Shown here one piece after another: positions 4,260 to 34,129 of a stretch of 64,000 nt of DNA. A model generated the notes under the pieces. That model searched no databases and was not told the origin of the DNA. It saw only the letters and a program-made list of their open reading frames with translations. The translations under genes were made by a program, and so were the position numbers. Source of the DNA: Mesodorylaimus sp. YZB2_4 (lineage: Eukaryota > Nematoda > Enoplea > Dorylaimida > Dorylaimidae); NCBI GenBank assembly GCA_030248295.1, contig JASANH010000916.1:310001-374000 (forward strand). The letters are read 5' to 3'. The first letter of the stretch is position 1, and each line of letters begins with the position of its first letter.

Positions 4260-5640
4260 TTAACTTCTAGCGGGTAGAGGTGCACCACTGATCGACTGAC
4301 TGTGACGACATTTGCCCTTCGACTGTCGTAGAACGTACAGTACGTGTCCATCGGCTGACTTGTTTGTTGACTTCCGTGATATCACAGATCCGCCCCAGAA
4401 CCTATTGTGCGCTTGGCCGGCTTTCGTCTTGGATGTGAACGAGCTCTCCCACTTGCAGCTCACAGTTGCGTCCTATGCGACCACATAAGATTTGATATAT
4501 GTGACCTTCCCGCAGCGCTGTGAGATACCCGTTTTGCCATATTAGCCAAAATCTATTCGCCACTTCTCGCCCCTTACGCAACATTTCTTGGAGAACCTTG
4601 ACTTCGTTGTCGCCGTTGACATTGATTACATCGGGACATTGCGGTTTGATGAAGCTGGATGGAGTTAGATATTCGACGCCTGGTTGATCATTCCCGACGT
4701 GTTGGGGGGGGGGGGGGGCGATTGTTGACCGCTTCCGATACCTCGTCCAGAACTGTTCGTATTTGCATCGTTGCCAGACGTTGTTGCCCCACTGTTTTCC
4801 GATATGCTTACTTGCTTGTGAATTAGTCGCCCGTAGAATCCACTCATCCAGGGAGCATTCTCAACGATAAAGTCCCAATGAATTCCGTTTTGTGCCACAA
4901 ATTCTGAACTATGGCCGACTTAAAATTGCCAACATTGTCGGATAAGACCAGGTGAGGTTTCCTTACCTGGCCATAAATCGCTTTAGAAGGAGGACCATTT
5001 GCTCGCCTGACATATCGTCGATCACATCGAGGAAAATTGCTTTAGTGACCATGCATTTAGCGATGCACATCCACTTCTTGGCCATCCGTCCATCCTTTTC
5101 TTTGACTACCATTGGTCCAAAGCAATCGATTCCGACGTGGGACAATGGCCTGGAGGGTATCACTCGTGCGCCCGGCAAATTTGGTGATGGGGGCAGCTTG
5201 AATGGACCTCCATCATACCGCCAACAAATTAGACAGCTTTGCAAACATCGAAACACCTCAGACTTACCACAGTGTACCCAGCATTGTTGGCGGAAACGAG
5301 CCAGCGCCCTAGCGACACCTGCGTGGAGCACCGGTGAGAAATGTATTCGATGATGAGTTTTGTGAGCTTGGACCCTCGCGGCAGTAGGATTGGATTCTTT
5401 GCCTCTTCTGGAATCGCAGCATTTCCCAATAGACCTTTGCACCATATTATTCCCTTGGCATCCAGGCATAGTGGGAGTTGACCAATGAGCCAAGCTTCCC
5501 AAGCTCTTCCCAAAATATTGCTCTCCTCAAACAGTACCGGCAGTAATCAGGTGCCAAACACACAGATATGTTCACTTGAAGATTCATAAGGTTCATAAGC
5601 AAGTCGAGAGCTACGGTTGCACAGGATACGCTAGTCATAT
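4260..5640 (-). mobile_element. BEL/Pao-type LTR retrotransposon remnant (integrase region, broken)
   Basis: Minus-strand reading frames give the C-terminal half of a BEL/Pao polyprotein in several frames. In order come an upstream motif ending NPILLPRGSKLTKLIIEY, then an integrase segment with RPLSHVGIDCFGPM (first catalytic Asp region), then LVLSDNVGNFKS and a WMSGFYGRLIH segment, then a downstream domain with FWLIWQNGYLTALREGH. Pao-type integrases are followed by such a domain. At least two frame changes (near 5400 and 4960-4900) and a stop interrupt the frame, so this is a fossil. No gag, protease, reverse transcriptase or clear LTRs were found. Confidence 0.8.
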
Positions 5641-25350: not shown

Positions 25351-25690
25351 TGTAATAGTCGACAACTTGCTAACCTCGAAACGTTTACTCAAGTCCCCAA
25401 GCATATGAAATACGGCAGTGTACATATAAGGTTAAAACATCATCGCAACTGGTTACAGGCGGGCCATTCTCGACCATTGTCCGCAATCGATAATGGCGGA
25501 CAATGGCGGTCCATATACGGCTCGTTGGTTTGCATAGCGCCGCATGGGGTGGGCGAGGTGCGGCCTAACACTAATACCTACGCGGACACGCACTTACATA
25601 CTTACGTTTACGGAGGACATTAATGATCATACACGTACTGTACAGCATCTAGGCTTACTGTACCAGCTAGGAGGAGGGATATCTATTACA
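25351..25690 (-). repeat. 3' LTR of the Gypsy element
   Basis: 340 bp, beginning TGTAATAG and ending CTATTACA, so the termini are 8-bp inverted repeats. It matches 33400-33739 base for base as far as I could read. On the coding strand it is preceded by a short purine run (GGGAGAA), the likely polypurine tract. The pol frame runs 64 bp into it. Confidence 0.95.
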
Positions 25691-28443
25691 TTCTCCCGGG
25701 CGGGTGACGAGTTTGCTCCTGCCGAGTGGCCCGGAATTTGTCGTGGTCGCAGATTGTAGTGTCGCACAGTGGAGCTCGGGGGTTGTCGTTTGATCGTCGG
25801 CTTCCGGTTAGTCGTGACGGTGGTAGGTTCCGTGGCGGTTGGTGTTGGTGGTGGCTGTGGCGTTGAGTCTTGGAGATGGCGCGGTCGTGGCGGTGGTGCT
25901 GGTTTAGTACGATTGACGTGGATCCAGCCTATCCGGAATTTGGAGTGCCGAACCGAAATGTTTGGGCCACGGACATCCTTTATGACAAACGGTCCTGTCC
26001 AGCGGTTTTGTAACGCTTTACTGGTGCCAGTTTTCGCGGCTTGGTTTTTGACCAACACTTTTTCACCCGGCCGATAGTGATGCATTCGCGCGGTCTTGTC
26101 GTATTGTTTCTTCTGTTTGTGCTGCGCGTGCACAATGTTTGCGTGAGCTGCCTCGTGTGATTTCGTTAATAGTGCTTTCACGGTTTCTGCATAGCTGTCC
26201 ATGTCAACTAAATATGGTTGCGGTTGAGGCGGCATTTGAAACGCTCCCGGGGTTCGGGGGGTTCTGCCGAAGTTAAGTTCGAACGGCGAATATTTGGAGG
26301 ACGCGTTAACAGACGTATTATGAGCATATACCGTATATGGCAACAGTTCGTCCCACATTACCTGCATATCGGGGTTACGTTTGGTGCGGGCGTATATGCG
26401 CAGCATGGTACCCAGACTTCGATGCCATCGTTCGATCAGGCCGTCTCCTTGGGGGTGATAAATGGATGAGTAGTTGTGCGTGATGCCAAAAATTTCGCAG
26501 ACGTCCTTCAGCGTGCTGGCGCGAAGGTTACTTCCATTATCGGAAATGAGGCGTTTTGGTGGTCCGTGCCGCAGTACGACTAATTCAATGAATGCTTTTG
26601 TCAAGGTTGTGGTGGAGACGTCGGGTACGGCGATTGCTTCGACATAACGTGTGAGATAATCGATGAAACTGATCGTGAAGCGATTGCCCGTTTGTGTATG
26701 ACCCTTGATTGGGCCTTTGATATCGACTGCTACGAGGGTCCATGGTGTGGTTGGAGGTGGGATCGGACATAACGGCGCCTTAATATAGTTTCGTGGTGCT
26801 TTCTGTTTTGCGCACTCAAGACATGTACTGCAGTATTCCTTGATATCTTTGAGCATTGTGGGCCTAAAAAATAGCGGTTTCAAGCGAGCGACGGTTTTCT
26901 GTGTGGCCATGTGTCCACAGAATGGGCTGTCGTGATAGAGCCGTAGAATTGCTGGCACTAAGGTGGATGGTACGCATAAACGTTTTTCGATGTCGCTGAC
27001 GCAGTGGTACAGGAGCCCATTTTTAAACTGAAAATTGTTATTTTCGTGTGGGTTTCCATTCCTTTCTCTTTCGATAATTTCTTGGATGATGATGCCGAAA
27101 ATACGATCTCGTCTTTGTGCTGCAGCCCATTCTTCCCAGTCCACAACTGGAGCCAGTAATTGCGGTAACCCTGCAATAATAGTGTTTGTCCATTTTTCTG
27201 TGGGCTTGGTTTCTGACCATTCTGCTTGTGATGTGCTATTCGGGGCGGATGGCGACTGTGCTGCCCCAAGTGCGCCGGGTAAATAAGTTTGAACAAACGA
27301 GTGTGCGTTCTGTAATGCCGCCCACAGATAATTGACCATTTCTTCCGCTGGAATAGCTGTGGTGACCTGATTTGGTTCCTCTGACTGATGATCCGTGGGG
27401 CATATTGGTGGTCGTGACAAGGGGTCGGCATTATTTCTGTTTCCAGGTCGGTATTGGAACGTGATCTTATATTGCTGTACTAGCATACCCCATCGTGCCA
27501 ATCGTGGGTTTGAGTGTTGTTTTTCGAAGATGCTTTTAAGAGCCTGGTTATCCGTGACGACCGTGATTTCTTGTCCATATAAAAGCGTACGGAAGTGCTC
27601 TAAACTGGCTACGATCGCCAATGCTTCCAATTCCCATATGGCGTAGTTTCTTTCGTGCTTGTTCAGTGCCCTTGCGTAGTACGCCACTGGGTGATCCCCG
27701 TCGGGGTATGGTTGGGATAGTACGGATCCCAAGCCCGTGATTGAGCTATCTGTTTGTAGAATCCATGGCTTTTTGAAATTCGGATGTGCTAAAATTGGCG
27801 CGTTCACGAGAGACTCTTTTATTTTCCAAAATGCTTGGTCTTGCTGCTGCCCCCATTCGAACGGTGTATTTTTGCATAGCAGTTTGTGCAGTGGGCGAGC
27901 GAGCGATGCGAAATTTTTGATAAAACGTTTGTAATAGACTGGCAACCCCAGGAATGATCGCAGCTCCGTTGCGTTTTTGGGTGGCTCACATGTTTTAATC
28001 TTTTCGATTTTCTGGGGATCGGGCTGGACACCATTCTGGCTGATCTGATATCCGAGGTACCGCACTTCTTCGCATAGGAACTGACATTTTTCAGGGCGTA
28101 GTTTCAGTCCCGCTTCATACAACCGTTCCAGGATGGCCTCCAGACGCTCATTGTGTTCTTGCATTGTGCGGCCGAATATGAGAATATCGTCCAAATAGGT
28201 CAGACACGTCTTGAATTGCATCCCAGCAAGGATGAGGTCCATTAGTGACTGAAAAGTGGCTGGTGCCCCTTTTAGTCCAAAAACCATGCGCGTTGGCTGA
28301 TAGTGGCCTGTGTGTGTGACAAATGCTGCTTTCTGTTGTGCACTATCGGATAGTGGTATTTGGAGGTACCCCCAAGCTTGATCTAACGACGTGAAGTACT
28401 GGCTTTCGCCGACAGCGTCGATCAGATCGTCGATTCGTGGCAT
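25627..28443 (-). CDS. pol: Gypsy pol: reverse transcriptase, RNase H and integrase (938 aa open frame)
   Basis: The frame opens within the reverse transcriptase. The active-site box is YLDDILIF at residues 83-90. RNase H follows at ~225-335 (LQTDSSITGLGSVLSQ, TDNQALKS). The integrase zinc finger is at ~505-545 (YHDSPFCGHMA to CSTCLECAKQK), its core has VAVDIKGPI, ISDNGSN and GLIERWHRSLG carrying the three acidic residues, and a GPF/Y-like end reads NRWTGPFVI. The frame ends inside the LTR. The first part of the reverse transcriptase is in another frame (28343-30388), so a break lies near 28500, upstream of the first Met at 28443. Whether it is a programmed shift or damage is unknown; a shift inside the polymerase domain would be atypical. 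Confidence 0.93.
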   Translation of the reverse strand: MPRIDDLIDAVGESQYFTSLDQAWGYLQIPLSDSAQQKAAFVTHTGHYQPTRMVFGLKGAPATFQSLMDLILAGMQFKTCLTYLDDILIFGRTMQEHNERLEAILERLYEAGLKLRPEKCQFLCEEVRYLGYQISQNGVQPDPQKIEKIKTCEPPKNATELRSFLGLPVYYKRFIKNFASLARPLHKLLCKNTPFEWGQQQDQAFWKIKESLVNAPILAHPNFKKPWILQTDSSITGLGSVLSQPYPDGDHPVAYYARALNKHERNYAIWELEALAIVASLEHFRTLLYGQEITVVTDNQALKSIFEKQHSNPRLARWGMLVQQYKITFQYRPGNRNNADPLSRPPICPTDHQSEEPNQVTTAIPAEEMVNYLWAALQNAHSFVQTYLPGALGAAQSPSAPNSTSQAEWSETKPTEKWTNTIIAGLPQLLAPVVDWEEWAAAQRRDRIFGIIIQEIIERERNGNPHENNNFQFKNGLLYHCVSDIEKRLCVPSTLVPAILRLYHDSPFCGHMATQKTVARLKPLFFRPTMLKDIKEYCSTCLECAKQKAPRNYIKAPLCPIPPPTTPWTLVAVDIKGPIKGHTQTGNRFTISFIDYLTRYVEAIAVPDVSTTTLTKAFIELVVLRHGPPKRLISDNGSNLRASTLKDVCEIFGITHNYSSIYHPQGDGLIERWHRSLGTMLRIYARTKRNPDMQVMWDELLPYTVYAHNTSVNASSKYSPFELNFGRTPRTPGAFQMPPQPQPYLVDMDSYAETVKALLTKSHEAAHANIVHAQHKQKKQYDKTARMHHYRPGEKVLVKNQAAKTGTSKALQNRWTGPFVIKDVRGPNISVRHSKFRIGWIHVNRTKPAPPPRPRHLQDSTPQPPPTPTATEPTTVTTNRKPTIKRQPPSSTVRHYNLRPRQIPGHSAGANSSPARENVIDIPPPSWYSKPRCCTVRV

Positions 28444-30388
28444 TGGGTATGCATTGAATTTCGTTTGAGCGTTGAGACGTCTCAGGTCGCAGCATACAGA
28501 ACGCGGAACGTATGCGGAACGTTTTGTCCTTCTTGGGGACTACCACGATGGGGCTTGCGTATGGGCTATCGGATACCTTGATCCATCCTAAGTCAAGTTG
28601 TTCCTTGATTTGTTTTTCTACTTCTTCGCGTAAGACTGGTGGTAATCGATGTGGGGGCTGTTGGAATGGTGGGTTATTGCCCGTATCGATCTCATGCTGA
28701 ACGAGTGGGCAAAATCCAATGTCGTTTTTGCTGCGTGCGTAGAGCCATGGAAATTTTGCCAGTATCTGCAAAAGTGTTTCTTTTTGTTCCTCAGTTGCTT
28801 TTGATTTATCCCATTTTACAGTTTGTGTTAGCCATGCGTAGACTTTCGAGTCGGGCTTATCGCGTTTTCGATGCTGAGGCGCTGTTGGATTGTTTGTCAT
28901 TTTCGGCTCGTGATTTGGATCGTCAGAAATGGTTAGCACCGCAGCTTCGTTGGTAATTGTGGTGACTGTACCGATACGACTGTTTGCGTAGACTGTAGCG
29001 TCTGTGCGTCCGACGTCCGTGATTTCGACGAGTATTTTGCCGTCTTGGACTTTTGAAACTGTCCTGGCGTAGCGTAGGCCCATTGAGTCCTGGTTGCTAT
29101 GGGGCTCAAACATGATTGTGGCGCCGTTTGGGGCGGAGACCGACAAAACAAAGTACTGTGTATGCTGCCCAGGTATCGTGAATGTATTCGCAACTTTTGC
29201 AATTTCTTCGTCGATTATTGGCTCGACTCCTCTGAGCTCGACAGTCCATGCCCCACCCAGGTCCAGTGTTTTGTTGTTAAAATCGAAGGCTGCGTACGGA
29301 AACCGATACAGAAAATCAGTTCCGAGGATTACGGGTACCACCAAGTCTTCGGCGACTAGTGCAACGATTGTTTGCCTATGGCCTTCTATGTCGATGTCTA
29401 GTGCTGTCATTCCTGCTAACTTGAGTTCTTCACCGTTTGCTACCTTTGGCCCGTCTGGTGCTGCGAATAGCGGGTTTGCGATTCCGAGCGACTGCATGAA
29501 TTTGTATGTATTATGCGCCAGCAACGTAACGCAGGAACCTGTGTCCCATAATGCCATAGCGCCTGGTTTACCATTTATTGTGACGACGCTCCAAGGTGTT
29601 TGTGGTTTCGCGTTTTGTAGACTGAGTACTCTGTATACGTCGTCGACAGTTTGTGCTTGACGTATTCCTGACTCCCGGGGACTCTGCCAGTGTAAGGCTG
29701 GGTAAAGCGGTTTGCTTTTTGGTTGTTTCATTTGGACCACTAAGTCAGCGATGGTAAGTGTCGTTGGGCCTTTCCAATGGCTGTAGTCGTTTGAGGACGG
29801 AAGCGCCGGGGCCGATGGTTTGTGCGCTACTAGTGCTGGCGTGGGTCCATAGTTTGTTTGGGCTCCTTCTGATAGTCTGCATGTCGGTGTATCCGTTGTT
29901 GATGTAGCGATCTGCGGTTCTTGTTCTGGGTCGGTGTGATCCGCGTCTGTGTGCCAGTCTCTGTTGCATCCATAGCAGTGTAAGAACAAATAAATGGCGA
30001 AGATAATAGCTCCAAGAACGAATAAGATTATGACGGTGGTGATGATGGAGTGCAGTGGCCCTCCTAACAGCTTATTTACTGATTCCGCTCCATTTTTGGC
30101 TATACCTCCAAACAATTTTCCGATACCGTCGCCTGCTCCTGTAAGAACGTTGCCTATGCCGTTCCCTACACCACTTAGAGTTTGGTACACTGCGTCGGGG
30201 CTCCATGACATATCAGCTGTGTATCTTATGACTCTATCCAATGCTTGTGCAATGCGTCCTGTATGTGTTGCATAGTGTCTTAGCATTTGGATTGCGCTTT
30301 CGACGCCCAGTAGTTGATCATGAAACAAAGCCGGTTGATCGAACAGAAACGGTTGCGATTTGTCTTTCCATGCGAGTTCGATTACCAA
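28343..30388 (-). CDS. Envelope-like membrane anchor fused to aspartic protease and start of reverse transcriptase (681 aa open frame)
   Basis: The frame carries, in order: a segment with SAIQMLRHYATHTGRIAQAL (residues ~31-50); a glycine-rich stretch GVGNGIGNVLTGAGDGIGKL at ~73-92; a hydrophobic membrane segment at ~115-137 (IITTVIILFVLGAIIFAIYL), then a Cys-containing juxtamembrane HCYGC; a ~140-residue linker; an aspartic protease with ALWDTGS at ~279-285 and VILGTDFLYRF; and the start of the reverse transcriptase (SPIVVVPKKDKTFRI). A glycine-rich region directly before an anchor is common in viral glycoproteins. Having the anchor in the same frame as protease is the odd feature. The open frame extends upstream of the first Met to a TAG near 30440. 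Confidence 0.8.
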   Translation of the reverse strand: MVIELAWKDKSQPFLFDQPALFHDQLLGVESAIQMLRHYATHTGRIAQALDRVIRYTADMSWSPDAVYQTLSGVGNGIGNVLTGAGDGIGKLFGGIAKNGAESVNKLLGGPLHSIITTVIILFVLGAIIFAIYLFLHCYGCNRDWHTDADHTDPEQEPQIATSTTDTPTCRLSEGAQTNYGPTPALVAHKPSAPALPSSNDYSHWKGPTTLTIADLVVQMKQPKSKPLYPALHWQSPRESGIRQAQTVDDVYRVLSLQNAKPQTPWSVVTINGKPGAMALWDTGSCVTLLAHNTYKFMQSLGIANPLFAAPDGPKVANGEELKLAGMTALDIDIEGHRQTIVALVAEDLVVPVILGTDFLYRFPYAAFDFNNKTLDLGGAWTVELRGVEPIIDEEIAKVANTFTIPGQHTQYFVLSVSAPNGATIMFEPHSNQDSMGLRYARTVSKVQDGKILVEITDVGRTDATVYANSRIGTVTTITNEAAVLTISDDPNHEPKMTNNPTAPQHRKRDKPDSKVYAWLTQTVKWDKSKATEEQKETLLQILAKFPWLYARSKNDIGFCPLVQHEIDTGNNPPFQQPPHRLPPVLREEVEKQIKEQLDLGWIKVSDSPYASPIVVVPKKDKTFRIRSAFCMLRPETSQRSNEIQCIPNATNRRSDRRCRRKPVLHVVRSSLGVPPNTTIR

Positions 30389-30396
30389 TGGTGTTA

Positions 30397-30714
30397 CTAC
30401 TGCTGGGCCGGTTGTGGTATACCAATGCGTGTTCTTCTGGACTGGAACCTACCGATCATGTGATGACCACATGGTATTGTTGTGTGTTGGGTCGTAAGGT
30501 CTTTAGTGCCGGGGATTACAAAGTAAGTGAGATTGCCAATGCGCACGGGTAATTCTGCATAGCAGGTATCATCGATCCTGTATGACCAATATATTTGAGA
30601 ACTTCGATTTACGGCTACGGATTTACATTGCCATATGAGTAATGCTTCCCCTGCAAAGGCAGCGTGAATGTCCGTGCGCTGCAATAGGGCTCTTGCTCCT
30701 AGGGTGGCATCCAA
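30397..30714 (-). CDS. Envelope-like segment continuing the gag frame after a TGA
   Basis: This frame is in register with the gag frame; only a TGA (followed by CAACTA) separates them. The first Met is at 30714 but the open segment continues from directly after the stop. It has four Cys, including AGEALLIWQCKS, DDTCYAELPV and TIPCGHHMIG, and reads like a glycoprotein ectodomain. It ends about where the membrane-anchor frame becomes open, indicating a frame change near 30400-30450. The TGA could be read through or be a mutation; I cannot tell from one copy. Confidence 0.6.
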   Translation of the reverse strand: MDATLGARALLQRTDIHAAFAGEALLIWQCKSVAVNRSSQIYWSYRIDDTCYAELPVRIGNLTYFVIPGTKDLTTQHTTIPCGHHMIGRFQSRRTRIGIPQPAQQ

Positions 30715-30726
30715 CCGAAGTAGTTG

Positions 30727-33216
30727 TCAGATGATCTGTAACTGTCGGGCTGCTGTTTTGCAGAGTTCCATCCAAACTTGGCGGAAGTTCGCTTGCTCGA
30801 GTTCCAGTATTCTGAGTTCTAAGTATTGCAGTTTTGGGTTTTCTGGGTCAAGAGAATTGAGCATTTGTCGCTTTTGCCGAGTTGAGGCTGTTATGCTTGT
30901 CATGTGTTGCGTCAATGCAGGTGATCGTAGATAGACACCTTGTATCGTTTTATGCATGTGTGTTTGATTGCATAGTGTGCTGGGTCCACCGTAAGTCAAC
31001 GCTGCTTGCAGCGAGTCAATAATGATCGCTTTGCCGTTTATTTTTAGCGTGACATCTTCTTTATACATCAATGGGCAAAAGTGCGAAAATACATTCTCTT
31101 TCCAAACCACAGTGTTATGTTTGGTCACACATGCTGTCATATTCTCTTCGCAGTTCGATAGATCGTCCAAGTCGCTCCATATGGCGTGCCCGTCATTTGT
31201 TGCGACTGATCCGAGCTCTAGAATGAAATTACTGCTTGTTTGGCAGACTTCCTTGCAACACCATGAGGATCCTATTTCCAAAGTGTCCAAAGCTGTCCAT
31301 TTGGTGCACTTGACGATGTTTGGGTCTTGGTGTTCGCTCTCATTGTCTGCGACCGACTCCGCTGGCGAGTCTGGTAGAAACTCGATGAACTCTGGCGTGA
31401 TGTCGAGTTCGTCTCTTTCGGCTTGGGCAATGGTTGGCTGCGTGCGAGGTTCAACGCGTTCTGGGTTGATTTCGATTTTTAGGGCTGTCTCCAAGTTCGG
31501 TTCGGTTTGGTCGTGTTGCCGGTGTAGTGGCTTTAGTTGTTGTAGCTCGAGTCGCTGCTGCTGAGGGGACTGGGTTGGTGATGACGATTGGGTCTCGATC
31601 ATCGTCAGCGGCTGCTCGTTGGTCCTTTCTTTAACTTGTTGCTCCTTTGGTGCTGGCGGCGTTGGTAGCAACGTCTTTCGTTTCGTGATACTGCCGGCAT
31701 AGTTAACGAAAGCGGCTTCGTCGATCGGCTGCCAATTTTCGTTGGTGGCCATGTTTTGTATGGTGGCTGCGTTTGCATTTCGGCAATTCCTGGCCCAATG
31801 TCCTTCTTGGTTACACTTCCGGCATTGGTTATCGTTGGGTCGTTTTGCTGAATTGGTCCCTTGGAACAGCTGTTGGTGCGGTTGGCGTGTTGCGGGCCCA
31901 TTGAACAATCGTGGGTCGCGGCAGCTTTTTGCGTCGTGCCCCCGGCGGTCACACAGCTGACACTTGGTCTGGAATCGGCATTCCTGACTGCTATGCGATT
32001 TCCATGCTCGTCCATGCTTCTTGCATTCGTCGCATCCCATTGTGTCAATACGTCGATTACTTGTCCCACTCATTCCGGCCTTTTGACCTAAAACGTTGGC
32101 CATTAAACTGAATGCTTTTAACAGTGATGCTGATTCATCCGTGGACGCGTTCGCCGATCCTAACTTTCCCCCTGGTTCCCACAGTTGCATAGCGCATGCT
32201 TTGCGGATGTAATCATCCAGCGTAGGATTATATATGTCCATACTGCCCACCATTTGCCTCATCTGTGCGGATTTTAACCCTCTGAGAAACTGTGATTTTA
32301 CTCTGCTTTCTTGTTCAGCGTTCGTGGAATTACGAAATGCTTTTCTTGCCAATTGTTTCAACTCATTTGCAAATGCTTCTACTGTTTCTCCTTCTCTCTG
32401 TACCCGTTGCTGAAGTTCTAGATCTCTTAGAGCGGCTGCGCGATTCTCTGGGAATCTCTCAATGAACTGCTGGCGATAAAAGGCCCAAGTGGGTGGATTG
32501 GGAGCTCCAATCATGATGTCCCGGTATGCTATTTTTGCGGACCCCATTACGGCAACATCTAGGAAATCGATTTTTGCTTGCTCATCTAATTGCAAGCGGC
32601 GAGAAAATCTTTCAAAATCGTCCAACCAGTCTGTTACGCTTTCATCGATGCTACCTCCGAATATGGGCGGTGTGCCTCCTAGATTGATTTTTCCCAGAAG
32701 ACCCATCAAATTTCCTGGTGTGTTAGCCTGTGCGATCCCATCCTGAACCTGCCTTATGGTGGCTTCTGCTAACTCTGCTCTCAATTGCGTGGCTAACTGT
32801 TCCATTCTGTTGTCCGCTACTATCTCCGTATGTACGTCTTGCCTTATGTGTCTGCGTTGCTGCGTTATGTTAGTTTGTGCCTCTTGGGCTGTCTCTGCTA
32901 CTTCCTTAACCTTATGCGCTGTTTCCTCACTGCTGTTATTTGCTATCTCCTCCTCTTGCGGGTCCTCAACCGTACTACTGAAGCTTGCCTCTTGGCTATC
33001 CTGACCGTCTACTGTGCTGCTGAAGCTTGTCTCTTGACTTTGCTTTTCCTTTTGTGGATCGTTCAAGCTAGTCTCTTGGCTTTGATGATCCTTTACAATA
33101 CTGTTTGCTTTTTTATTCTGTTTGGTTTGGCTTTTGCCTATACTTCCTTGTGCTCCGGCCGTATGAGTCCTATTTCTCGTGGCCCTGTGTGTGGTTCCAC
33201 TGGCTTGCTCCTCCAA
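30727..33216 (-). CDS. gag: Gypsy gag with in-frame envelope-like ectodomain (829 aa)
   Basis: Residues 1-~130 are Ser/Gln/Glu-rich with SQETS repeats. Residues ~165-345 resemble the retrotransposon gag capsid (DWLDDFERFSRRL, ERFPENRAAALRDLELQQR, EGETVEAFANELKQL). Two CX2CX4HX4C zinc knuckles follow: CQLCDRRGHDAKSC at ~419-432 and CRKCNQEGHWARNC at ~465-478. After an acidic linker, residues ~637-780 change character: about eight Cys, sequons NMT and NQT, and segments such as SSWCCKEVCQTSSN. A furin-type RQKR sits at ~780-783, followed by a helical LELRILELEQANF. That tail is unlike any gag I know and looks like the surface part of an envelope. No signal peptide is seen before it. Confidence 0.85.
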   Translation of the reverse strand: MEEQASGTTHRATRNRTHTAGAQGSIGKSQTKQNKKANSIVKDHQSQETSLNDPQKEKQSQETSFSSTVDGQDSQEASFSSTVEDPQEEEIANNSSEETAHKVKEVAETAQEAQTNITQQRRHIRQDVHTEIVADNRMEQLATQLRAELAEATIRQVQDGIAQANTPGNLMGLLGKINLGGTPPIFGGSIDESVTDWLDDFERFSRRLQLDEQAKIDFLDVAVMGSAKIAYRDIMIGAPNPPTWAFYRQQFIERFPENRAAALRDLELQQRVQREGETVEAFANELKQLARKAFRNSTNAEQESRVKSQFLRGLKSAQMRQMVGSMDIYNPTLDDYIRKACAMQLWEPGGKLGSANASTDESASLLKAFSLMANVLGQKAGMSGTSNRRIDTMGCDECKKHGRAWKSHSSQECRFQTKCQLCDRRGHDAKSCRDPRLFNGPATRQPHQQLFQGTNSAKRPNDNQCRKCNQEGHWARNCRNANAATIQNMATNENWQPIDEAAFVNYAGSITKRKTLLPTPPAPKEQQVKERTNEQPLTMIETQSSSPTQSPQQQRLELQQLKPLHRQHDQTEPNLETALKIEINPERVEPRTQPTIAQAERDELDITPEFIEFLPDSPAESVADNESEHQDPNIVKCTKWTALDTLEIGSSWCCKEVCQTSSNFILELGSVATNDGHAIWSDLDDLSNCEENMTACVTKHNTVVWKENVFSHFCPLMYKEDVTLKINGKAIIIDSLQAALTYGGPSTLCNQTHMHKTIQGVYLRSPALTQHMTSITASTRQKRQMLNSLDPENPKLQYLELRILELEQANFRQVWMELCKTAARQLQII

Positions 33217-33379
33217 GGCTGTCCTAATTGCTTGTCTCTGGATTTCCAGAAACTGCTCGTGTTTGCTGCTTTTCCTAGCTGTTGCTAGTCTCGTATCTCG
33301 TACTTACTCAGTAATTCCGCCTATTGGCGCTATCGTAGAATAATAACTTCGATTTGGCTGCTTGTCTTCGGAGTTCGTA

Positions 33380-33397
33380 TCCCGTGTGCGGGCCCCA
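33380..33397 (-). promoter_or_regulatory. Primer binding site of the Gypsy element
   Basis: Two bases inside the 5' LTR the coding strand reads TGGGGCCCGCACACGGGA, starting with the TGG expected opposite a tRNA CCA end. On the opposite strand the complement is preceded by gagttcgtat, which resembles a T loop, so pairing may extend past 18 nt. I could not assign the tRNA. Confidence 0.65.
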
Positions 33398-33399
33398 GA

Positions 33400-33739
33400 T
33401 GTAATAGTCGACAACTTGCTAACCTCGAAACGTTTACTCAAGTCCCCAAGCATATGAAATACGGCAGTGTACATATAAGGTTAAAACATCATCGCAACTG
33501 GTTACAGGCGGGCCATTCTCGACCATTGTCCGCAATCGATAATGGCGGACAATGGCGGTCCATATACGGCTCGTTGGTTTGCATAGCGCCGCATGGGGTG
33601 GGCGAGGTGCGGCCTAACACTAATACCTACGCGGACACGCACTTACATACTTACGTTTACGGAGGACATTAATGATCATACACGTACTGTACAGCATCTA
33701 GGCTTACTGTACCAGCTAGGAGGAGGGATATCTATTACA
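33400..33739 (-). repeat. 5' LTR of the Gypsy element
   Basis: 340 bp, same sequence as 25351-25690. As the 5' LTR it should hold the element's promoter on the minus strand. GATC follows at 33740-33743 as target duplication. Confidence 0.95.
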
Positions 33740-34129
33740 GATCCCTGATTGCACTGACCAAGTTGGCCCTGCCGCACTTGCTCGAATCCAAGGGTAACGT
33801 CGTGAATATTTCATCTGAAACTGGCCAAGCTGCCACTGAAAGGCGCCTGTTTTATGCGCTGACGAAAGCCACGGTTGATCATTTCACTAGGTGCCTAGCG
33901 AAAGAGTTTGGTCCAAAAGGTGTGCGAGTAAATGCGGTCAGGTAAGAGTAGATTCATTTTGTCTGCTTGAAACAGTGACTTGTGTTACGTTTCAGCCCAG
34001 GCTATATTCCCGAAACTGACCTTCTGAGCCGAATTGGATATACTGATAGTGATAAGGAGGTGAGATTCTGTTGACTTGTGCATCCGAGTGCATGCAATAT
34101 ACATTATCCCTACCGTCTGATATGGTTTG

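What the first reader, a model, noticed from the sequence alone, without database searches (positions are those of the whole stretch)
28343..33216. Gypsy element with the envelope between gag and protease, not after integrase
Seen: after the zinc knuckles the gag frame continues into a Cys-rich, sequon-bearing segment with an RQKR furin-type site. After a TGA the same frame carries more Cys-rich sequence. The next frame holds a Gly-rich stretch, a ~23-residue membrane anchor and a cytoplasmic linker leading straight into the aspartic protease. Known: env-bearing Metaviridae and retroviruses place env downstream of pol. Inference: an envelope was captured or rearranged into the gag-pol junction. 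I know of no described family with this order.
Basis: partly seen in the sequence, partly recalled or inferred. Interest (0 to 1): 0.88.

Follow-up and report, generated by a model that had tools for sequence, protein, structure and literature searches.

The report
Envelope inside a retrotransposon's Gag-Pol
A family of virus-like jumping genes in this genome carries a viral membrane-fusion protein in the middle of its capsid-enzyme polyprotein instead of as a separate gene at the end; the copy in the window is young but broken.

Summary
The window carries an LTR element on the minus strand (25351-33739): two identical 340-bp LTRs and a GATC target duplication. Its order is Gag - glycoprotein - transmembrane anchor - protease - RT - RNase H - integrase.

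The order recurs. Of 12 stretches fetched around Env matches, 8 have Gag upstream, 9 have PR or RT downstream, 5 both, none has Env after integrase. Two lineages run from Gag through signal peptide, Env, TM and PR into RT in one open frame (1,887 and 1,861 aa). Of 21 assessable elements of this RT clade, 18 have Env 1.2-2.3 kb upstream of RT and 2 keep Env remnants between NC and PR; none of the 125 other listed RT rows does.

Env is a class III fusion protein of the chuvirus/mononegavirus type (PF24664; gB-like fold), under purifying selection between subfamilies; one lineage appears to have swapped it as a cassette.

The window copy is broken: an 834-bp in-frame deletion removed the signal peptide and Env N-terminus; it also has a TGA and two frame changes.

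Best reading: Env is an internal, membrane-threaded segment of a Gag-Env-Pol polyprotein. This is inferred; RNA evidence is missing. Gypsy with class III Env was known; I found no report of this position, but could not read the key survey.

The parts
33400..33739 (-). 5' LTR, 340 bp, TGTAATAG...CTATTACA
   Evidence: identical to the 3' LTR over 340 bp with no mismatch or gap; 4-bp GATC on both outer flanks
25351..25690 (-). 3' LTR, 340 bp
33370..33397 (-). probable tRNA primer binding site starting TGG, 2 bases after the 5' LTR
   Evidence: sequence read; tRNA not identified
32272..32550 (-). Gag capsid core (Retrotrans_gag)
   Evidence: PF03732 E=4.3e-5, exactly at its cut-off
31783..31962 (-). 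two CCHC zinc knuckles of nucleocapsid
   Evidence: PF00098 E=5.4e-5; motifs located
31282..31286 (-). junction of an 834-bp in-frame deletion that removed the signal peptide and Env N-terminal part; ACAC microhomology
   Evidence: alignment to L042, L043, L050; the same junction in L011 (C184)
30730..31281 (-). Env ectodomain, first remaining piece, with RQKR at 30868-30879
   Evidence: homologous to the Env of L041/L040/L043
30727..30729 (-). TGA stop inside Env; kin rows that cover the place in A3 have an amino acid here
30400..30723 (-). Env ectodomain, second piece; the frame changes within about 30400-30448
   Evidence: PF24664 E=8.2e-12
29981..30440 (-). Env C-terminal piece: Gly-rich stem (30101-30172) and membrane anchor (29981-30049)
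29306..29584 (-). aspartic protease
   Evidence: gag-asp_proteas PF13975 E=6e-5, 24.0 bits, under its cut-off of 28.2; LWDTGS
28343..28539 (-). overlap in which the reading frame changes at the start of RT
   Evidence: one frame in L041
25630..28539 (-). RT, RNase H, integrase
   Evidence: PF00078 E=4.6e-29, PF17917 8.8e-33, PF17921 4.4e-16, PF00665 1.6e-9

Best explanation
The locus is a young but broken copy of a clade of Ty3/gypsy (Metaviridae) elements whose ancestor took up a class III fusion glycoprotein of the chuvirus/mononegavirus type into the gag-pol frame, between nucleocapsid and protease. Kin encode Gag - linker - signal peptide - Env ectodomain - TM anchor - cytoplasmic linker - PR - RT in one open frame, with RH and IN behind. 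SHOWN: order, recurrence, open frames, hydrophobic signal-like and TM segments, Env homology, selection, association with one RT group. INFERRED: the ribosome makes Gag in the cytosol, the internal signal peptide threads Env into the ER, the TM anchor stops transfer so that PR-RT-IN are again cytosolic, signal peptidase frees Env at its N-terminus, and the element's own protease cuts at its C-terminus, much as flavivirus polyproteins are laid through a membrane. Env would then serve entry or cell-to-cell spread without a spliced env mRNA. The window copy comes from a deletion variant that lost the signal peptide yet has at least one sister copy, so Env in that variant is probably dispensable or supplied in trans.
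For: Order: one search fetched 12 stretches chosen for an Env match (so all hold Env by choice); 8 have a Gag match upstream, 9 PR or RT downstream, 5 both, 0 Env after integrase. One frame carries gag CA through Env to RT in L041 (1,887 aa) and L040 (1,861 aa, RT incomplete). Signal-like segments before Env and TM segments before PR in three lineages. RT clade of 24 elements at 53% identity or more to L041 among 150 listed rows: 3 sit at contig edges; of the other 21, 18 have Env 1.2-2.3 kb upstream of RT on the same strand, 2 keep Env remnants between NC and PR, 1 has Env about 6.5-6.9 kb upstream; of the other 125 listed rows none has an Env match within 3 kb upstream on its strand. Env identity: PF24664 at 4e-23, 5.5e-14, 4.8e-16 in three lineages; profile to gB 2e-5; fold to gB 1.4e-18 and to negative-strand virus glycoproteins 5.6e-27. 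Selection: dN/dS of Env pieces 0.08-0.33 between the two subfamilies, RT 0.11-0.14. Env rows labelled element split from four stand-alone Env with 100/100. No Met directly before the signal-like segment in two of three lineages. Recent mobility: LTR identity 100% (window), 99.4% (L042, LTR cut by the fetched edge), 98.9% (L049); TSDs GATC and GAAC.
Against: No RNA or protein data. In L041 a Met lies directly at the signal segment; donor-like sites lie just upstream of it in L041 and L042, and in L042 such a donor and an acceptor-like site would remove 1,725 bases, a multiple of three, so splicing is not excluded. The fold model is of middling confidence (mean pLDDT 62.5, pTM 0.33, TM-scores about 0.3). 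The RT group is only weakly supported as one clade (67/66 and 64/49). Within subfamilies Env dN/dS is often higher (0.22-2.2, few changes). Copies with decayed Env exist (C70:89778, C480), and the deletion variant has a sister copy, so Env is not needed for every transposition. The 18 of 21 rest on coordinates; PR between Env and RT was seen only in fetched stretches.
Confidence: 0.7

Rival explanations
1. Env sits in the gag-pol frame but is expressed by RNA processing: either a spliced message starts just before the signal peptide, or env is spliced out as an optional intron to make Gag-Pol.
For: Insect errantiviruses make Env from spliced subgenomic mRNA (PMC12992720, passages). Donor-like sites just upstream of the signal segment in L041 and L042; Met at the segment in L041. 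In L042 the donor-like site at 2829 and the acceptor-like site ending at 4553 would excise 1,725 bases, in frame, spanning signal segment to TM region (a one-in-three chance).
Against: No acceptor-like site with a pyrimidine tract between NC and the signal segment in a simple scan of three lineages, and no Met there in two of three. In L041 the only such pair is not in frame (494 bases) and L040 has no acceptor-like site in the scan. No stop after the TM anchor in the intact frames, so a separate Env would still run into protease. The scan uses no host-specific splice model.
Confidence: 0.24
2. Env in this slot no longer serves entry; it works mainly as a membrane anchor that brings Gag-Pol to membranes, or is a passenger.
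For: The deletion variant without signal peptide has at least one sister copy (window and C184). Members with decayed Env exist. Within-subfamily Env dN/dS reaches 0.5 to 2.2, on few changes.
Against: The ectodomain keeps cysteines and a gB-like core and is under purifying selection between subfamilies; an Env cassette exchange between lineages suggests that the ectodomain matters.
Confidence: 0.1
3. A single chimeric locus or an assembly error.
For: Several lesions in the window copy.
Against: Recurs on many contigs and in several lineages, with independent target duplications in the two copies checked.
Confidence: 0.01

Closest known systems
Env-carrying metazoan gypsy elements / errantiviruses, some with type III glycoproteins (Chary and Hayashi 2025, not readable here; PMC13172572, passages seen)
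   Same: Ty3/gypsy Gag-PR-RT-RH-IN with a captured viral fusion glycoprotein; type III known in mosquito gypsy
   Different: In insect errantiviruses Env is a third frame made from spliced RNA (PMC12992720, passages). Here it lies between nucleocapsid and protease in the gag-pol frame
Anakin (BEL/Pao with chuvirus glycoprotein, PMC7642597, passages seen)
   Same: Glycoprotein of the chuvirus type in an LTR element
   Different: Pol here is gypsy type with no Peptidase_A17 match; the passages seen did not state where the glycoprotein lies in Anakin
Cer-7, Tas, Roo (BEL/Pao; named in a passage of PMC7642597)
   Same: LTR elements with captured env, Cer-7's said to come from a herpesvirus
   Different: Env downstream of the polyprotein, BEL/Pao pol
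Jingchuvirales/Mononegavirales glycoproteins (PF24664)
   Same: Significant Pfam and fold matches; signal peptide, gB-like ectodomain, Gly-rich stem, TM
   Different: In those viruses G is a gene of its own (recalled); here an internal polyprotein segment
Stand-alone Env frames in the same genome (L051, L058, L060)
   Same: Same protein family, with own signal segment; L051 and L058 also with TM
   Different: Separate frames with own Met; no match to this clade's Gag or Pol in the 7.5-kb stretch of L051 (for L058 and L060 only about 2.4 kb was held); across a 100/100 branch
Flavivirus-like polyproteins (recalled)
   Same: Works like: envelope threaded through the ER inside a polyprotein that starts with the capsid
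   Different: No common ancestry claimed; retroelement with integrase

Membership tests
Metaviridae (Ty3/gypsy) | PR-RT-RH-IN order with gypsy-type RT/RNase H and integrase | tested here: met
   RVT_1, RT_RNaseH, Integrase_H2C2, rve in order; PR match 24.0 bits, under the 28.2 cut-off, but LWDTGS present
Metaviridae (Ty3/gypsy) | LTRs TG...CA with short target duplication | tested here: met
   window GATC, L049 GAAC, both 4 bp
Metaviridae (Ty3/gypsy) | Gag with capsid and CCHC nucleocapsid | tested here: met
   PF03732 at its cut-off, PF00098 above it
Errantivirus (insect type) | Env as third frame downstream of pol | tested here: not met
   Env lies between NC and PR
Errantivirus (insect type) | F-type (class I) Env | tested here: not met
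   class III by PF24664 and fold
Belpaoviridae / Anakin | BEL-type pol (Peptidase_A17) | tested here: not met
   no PF05380 match in P0003/P0004 at E up to 1
Monjiviricetes fusion glycoprotein (PF24664) | Pfam gathering score | tested here: met
   81.7, 51.5 and 58.3 bits in three element lineages, 44.3 in window piece P0002; cut-off 27
Herpesvirus gB (PF00606) | Pfam gathering score | tested here: not met
   best 28.6 bits (stand-alone L051) and 15.7 (L040) against 43; same fold, not a member
Class III fusion protein | gB/G-like multidomain fold | tested here: met
Class III fusion protein | bipartite fusion loops and trimeric post-fusion state | not tested
   model not precise enough; monomer predicted only
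Infectious retrovirus-like agent | particles that enter cells through this Env | not testable with these tools
   needs wet-lab work

The most novel reading that the evidence does not exclude
A lineage of LTR retroelements that makes its envelope as an internal, ER-threaded segment of a single Gag-Env-Pol polyprotein, with no separate or spliced env gene: another way of building an enveloped reverse-transcribing agent, with Env fixed 1:1 to Gag-Pol before processing and exchanged between lineages as a cassette.
Probability: 0.5. Interest if true: 0.87.

Novelty: new variant of a known kind. Interest (0 to 1): 0.74.

Why it matters
Retroviruses and env-bearing LTR elements are usually described as gag-pol-env, with Env set apart by splicing so that far less Env and Pol than Gag is made. 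An in-frame Gag-Env-Pol order breaks that rule and asks how Gag, Env and enzyme amounts, membrane topology and particle assembly are managed from one protein. It also shows that capture need not add a gene at the 3' end, and gives a natural setting (many copies, several lineages, a deletion variant, an apparent Env exchange) in which the steps from intracellular transposon to enveloped agent can be compared.

Tried and rejected
Chimeric single locus: rejected by recurrence. Programmed readthrough at the TGA or programmed frameshift in the window: not needed, since kin rows that cover the TGA have an amino acid there and L041 and L040 run in one frame. Class I fusion protein: the listed fold matches are class III. 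Window deletion as a spliced intron: the junction lacks GT...AG and shows ACAC microhomology, more like template switching. Stand-alone Env as parts of BEL/Pao elements: none of the listed Peptidase_A17 matches (150 candidates scored) lies on the contigs of L051, L052, L058, L059 or L060. Outgroup element C78 (frame of 2,917 aa) hiding another Env between Gag and PR: in the 1,484-residue part read, a linker leads from CCHC to PR in which I saw no signal peptide or TM (no hydropathy run on it).

No relatives found: protein database with an Env piece and with a stand-alone Env, 7,994 candidates scored each, none at E up to 0.001; viral contigs with Env and RT, none; alignment query A3 not accepted. 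First fold model from six rows too poor to use (mean pLDDT 39.4). One search read minus-strand loci in the wrong orientation and is replaced. Host not identified. RQKR is not general: seen in 6 of 30 loci, all window-family kin. Rows dropped before counts: Env tree used 18 of the 20 rows of A3, two short ones left out; RT tree left out sources whose RT match was short or held a stop (L005 was not given; L049, L050 and L030 gave no row). Literature: 10 searches; in their listings and in the passages opened I saw no report of env between gag and protease; only open-licence PMC papers are held.

Full report
WHAT IS THERE. The element lies on the minus strand, 25351-33739. Its LTRs are 340 bp and identical, begin TGTAATAG and end CTATTACA, and are flanked by a GATC duplication. 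Four open stretches follow: gag with a Cys-rich tail (33303-30730), a continuation after a TGA (30723-30400), a third in another frame (30448-28346) and pol (28539-25630). Pfam finds Retrotrans_gag and CCHC in the first, Monjiviricetes_fusion in the second (E=8.2e-12), a retropepsin-like protease in the third (below its cut-off, but with LWDTGS) and RT, RNase H and integrase in the fourth.

IT RECURS. A search of the same 145-Mb genome with P0002 gave 82 matches; a search with a full Env from another lineage gave 82 rows. I fetched 12 stretches around P0002 matches, so all hold Env by choice, and searched them domain by domain. A Gag match lies upstream in 8 (L040, L041, L042, L043, L047, L048, L049, L050), PR or RT downstream in 9 (L039, L040, L041, L042, L044, L045, L046, L049, L050), both in 5. 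None has Env after integrase. In L041 one frame of 1,887 aa runs from Gag through Env and PR to RT; in L040 one of 1,861 aa does the same, with RT incomplete. These two lineages share 37% of Env residues.

ASSOCIATION WITH ONE RT GROUP. RT of L041 against the genome lists 150 rows with a step: 25 rows, 24 elements, at 53% or more; the rest at 50% or less. Three of the 24 begin at a contig edge. Of the other 21, 18 have an Env match 1.2 to 2.3 kb upstream of RT on the same strand (C10, C476, C356, C113, C324, C101, C838, C90 twice, C85, C44, C595, C12, C657, C40, C437, C436, C96; coordinates). C70:89778 and C480 keep Gag, NC, broken Env pieces with the TM end, and PR. C411 has Env 6.5-6.9 kb upstream. 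Among the other 125 listed rows none has an Env match or 94 within 3 kb upstream on its strand. One control from the rest, C78, goes from CCHC to PR with no Env that I could see. In RT trees the Env-bearing rows fall on one side of a branch, but weakly (67/66, 64/49). C85 and C184 are contig ends that overlap with one mismatch in 1,219 bases and may be one element.

THE WINDOW COPY IS BROKEN. Against L043 and L042 it lacks 834 bp, in frame, with ACAC at the junction; the lost stretch holds the signal segment and Env N-terminus. L011 (C184) shares the deletion, so this variant has at least one sister copy. The window copy has in addition a TGA and two frame changes. It is young by its LTRs yet cannot make the full protein as it stands.

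SELECTION AND EXCHANGE. In the window family, pairs between the two subfamilies (window, L043, L044 against L042, L050) give dN/dS of 0.08-0.33 for Env pieces, 0.11-0.14 for RT, 0.07-0.12 for PR and 0.08-0.11 for gag CA. Pairs within a subfamily rest on few changes and are often higher (Env up to 2.2 for window against L044; RT up to 0.59). In an Env tree of 18 rows, 14 labelled element split from 4 stand-alone Env with 100/100; of the 14, 9 come from copies in which this clade's Gag or RT was seen in place, one (C411) has RT 6.5 kb off, and 4 have no listed RT. For lineages in both trees the Env and RT trees agree, apart from C838 and C113: their RT groups with C476, C480 and C70 (99/98) and then L041 and the window family (99/97), with 59-61% identity to L041 against 44-46% to C12; but their Env groups with the C12 lineage (100/99; C838 57% to C12 kin L040 against 42% to L041). 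In C838 the closer relative changes from C12 to C10 type between TM and PR. I read this as an exchange of the Env cassette within its slot.

HOW IT LIKELY WORKS. If read as one polyprotein, Gag is cytosolic, the internal signal threads Env into the ER, the TM stops transfer, and PR-RT-IN are cytosolic. Signal peptidase and the element's protease would cut. This is inference from anatomy. Two of three lineages have no Met directly before the signal segment, and a simple scan found no good acceptor there, which argues against a separate env message. Against this, L042 has a donor-like site just before the signal segment and an acceptor-like site 1,725 bases on, in frame, so removal of env by splicing stays open; L041 and L040 show no such in-frame pair.

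ELSEWHERE IN THE GENOME. Stand-alone Env frames with own Met and signal segment exist (L051, L058, L060). One outgroup gypsy copy, C322, has a broken Env fragment between integrase and 3' LTR, absent from sister copy C291. It could be a remnant of an env in the usual place or an insertion.

NOVELTY. PMC10084718 (passages) states no clear evidence of Jingchuvirales glycoprotein capture by Gypsy. PMC13172572 (passages) speaks of gypsy elements with type III glycoproteins in mosquitoes and cites Chary and Hayashi 2025, which I could not read. PMC12992720 (passages) describes spliced env in insect errantiviruses. PMC5408684 (passages) describes env-like ORF3 downstream of pol in rotifers. Ten searches, of which I saw listings and some passages, showed no report of env between gag and protease. 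I therefore call it a new variant of a known kind.

Noticed in passing
L030 (C838), L061, L029/L062 (C113): RT (C838, C113) and PR (C838) are closer to the C10 lineage but Env to the C12 lineage, with the change between TM and PR in C838: an apparent Env cassette exchange.
   Followed up: yes
L055 650-2411 (C322:79149-80910): A gypsy copy of an outgroup RT group holds a broken class III Env fragment downstream of integrase, inside the element; the sister copy C291 lacks it.
   Followed up: partly
L051, L052, L058, L059, L060: Separate Env frames of the same family, some with own Met and TM (L051 662 aa, L058 612 aa), without matches to this clade's Gag/Pol in the 7.5-kb stretches of L051 and L052; L051 also has a second, 78% similar piece 2.2 kb on. 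They may be host genes, viral insertions or parts of unknown elements.
   Followed up: partly
C353:61168, C301:3960, C881:13943, C1044:9301, C608:693: Dispersed Env fragments that share the same kinds of stops, as if spread in broken form by duplication or in trans.
   Followed up: no
L067 (C78) and C92, C123, C435, C271: Gypsy elements with single frames of 2,842-3,108 aa at 45-46% RT identity; the part of C78 read shows Gag to RT start without Env.
   Followed up: partly
window 33676-33945 (+): An open frame that looks to me like a short-chain dehydrogenase (recalled, no search) abuts and partly overlaps the 5' LTR; whether the insertion hits a host gene was not tested.
   Followed up: no
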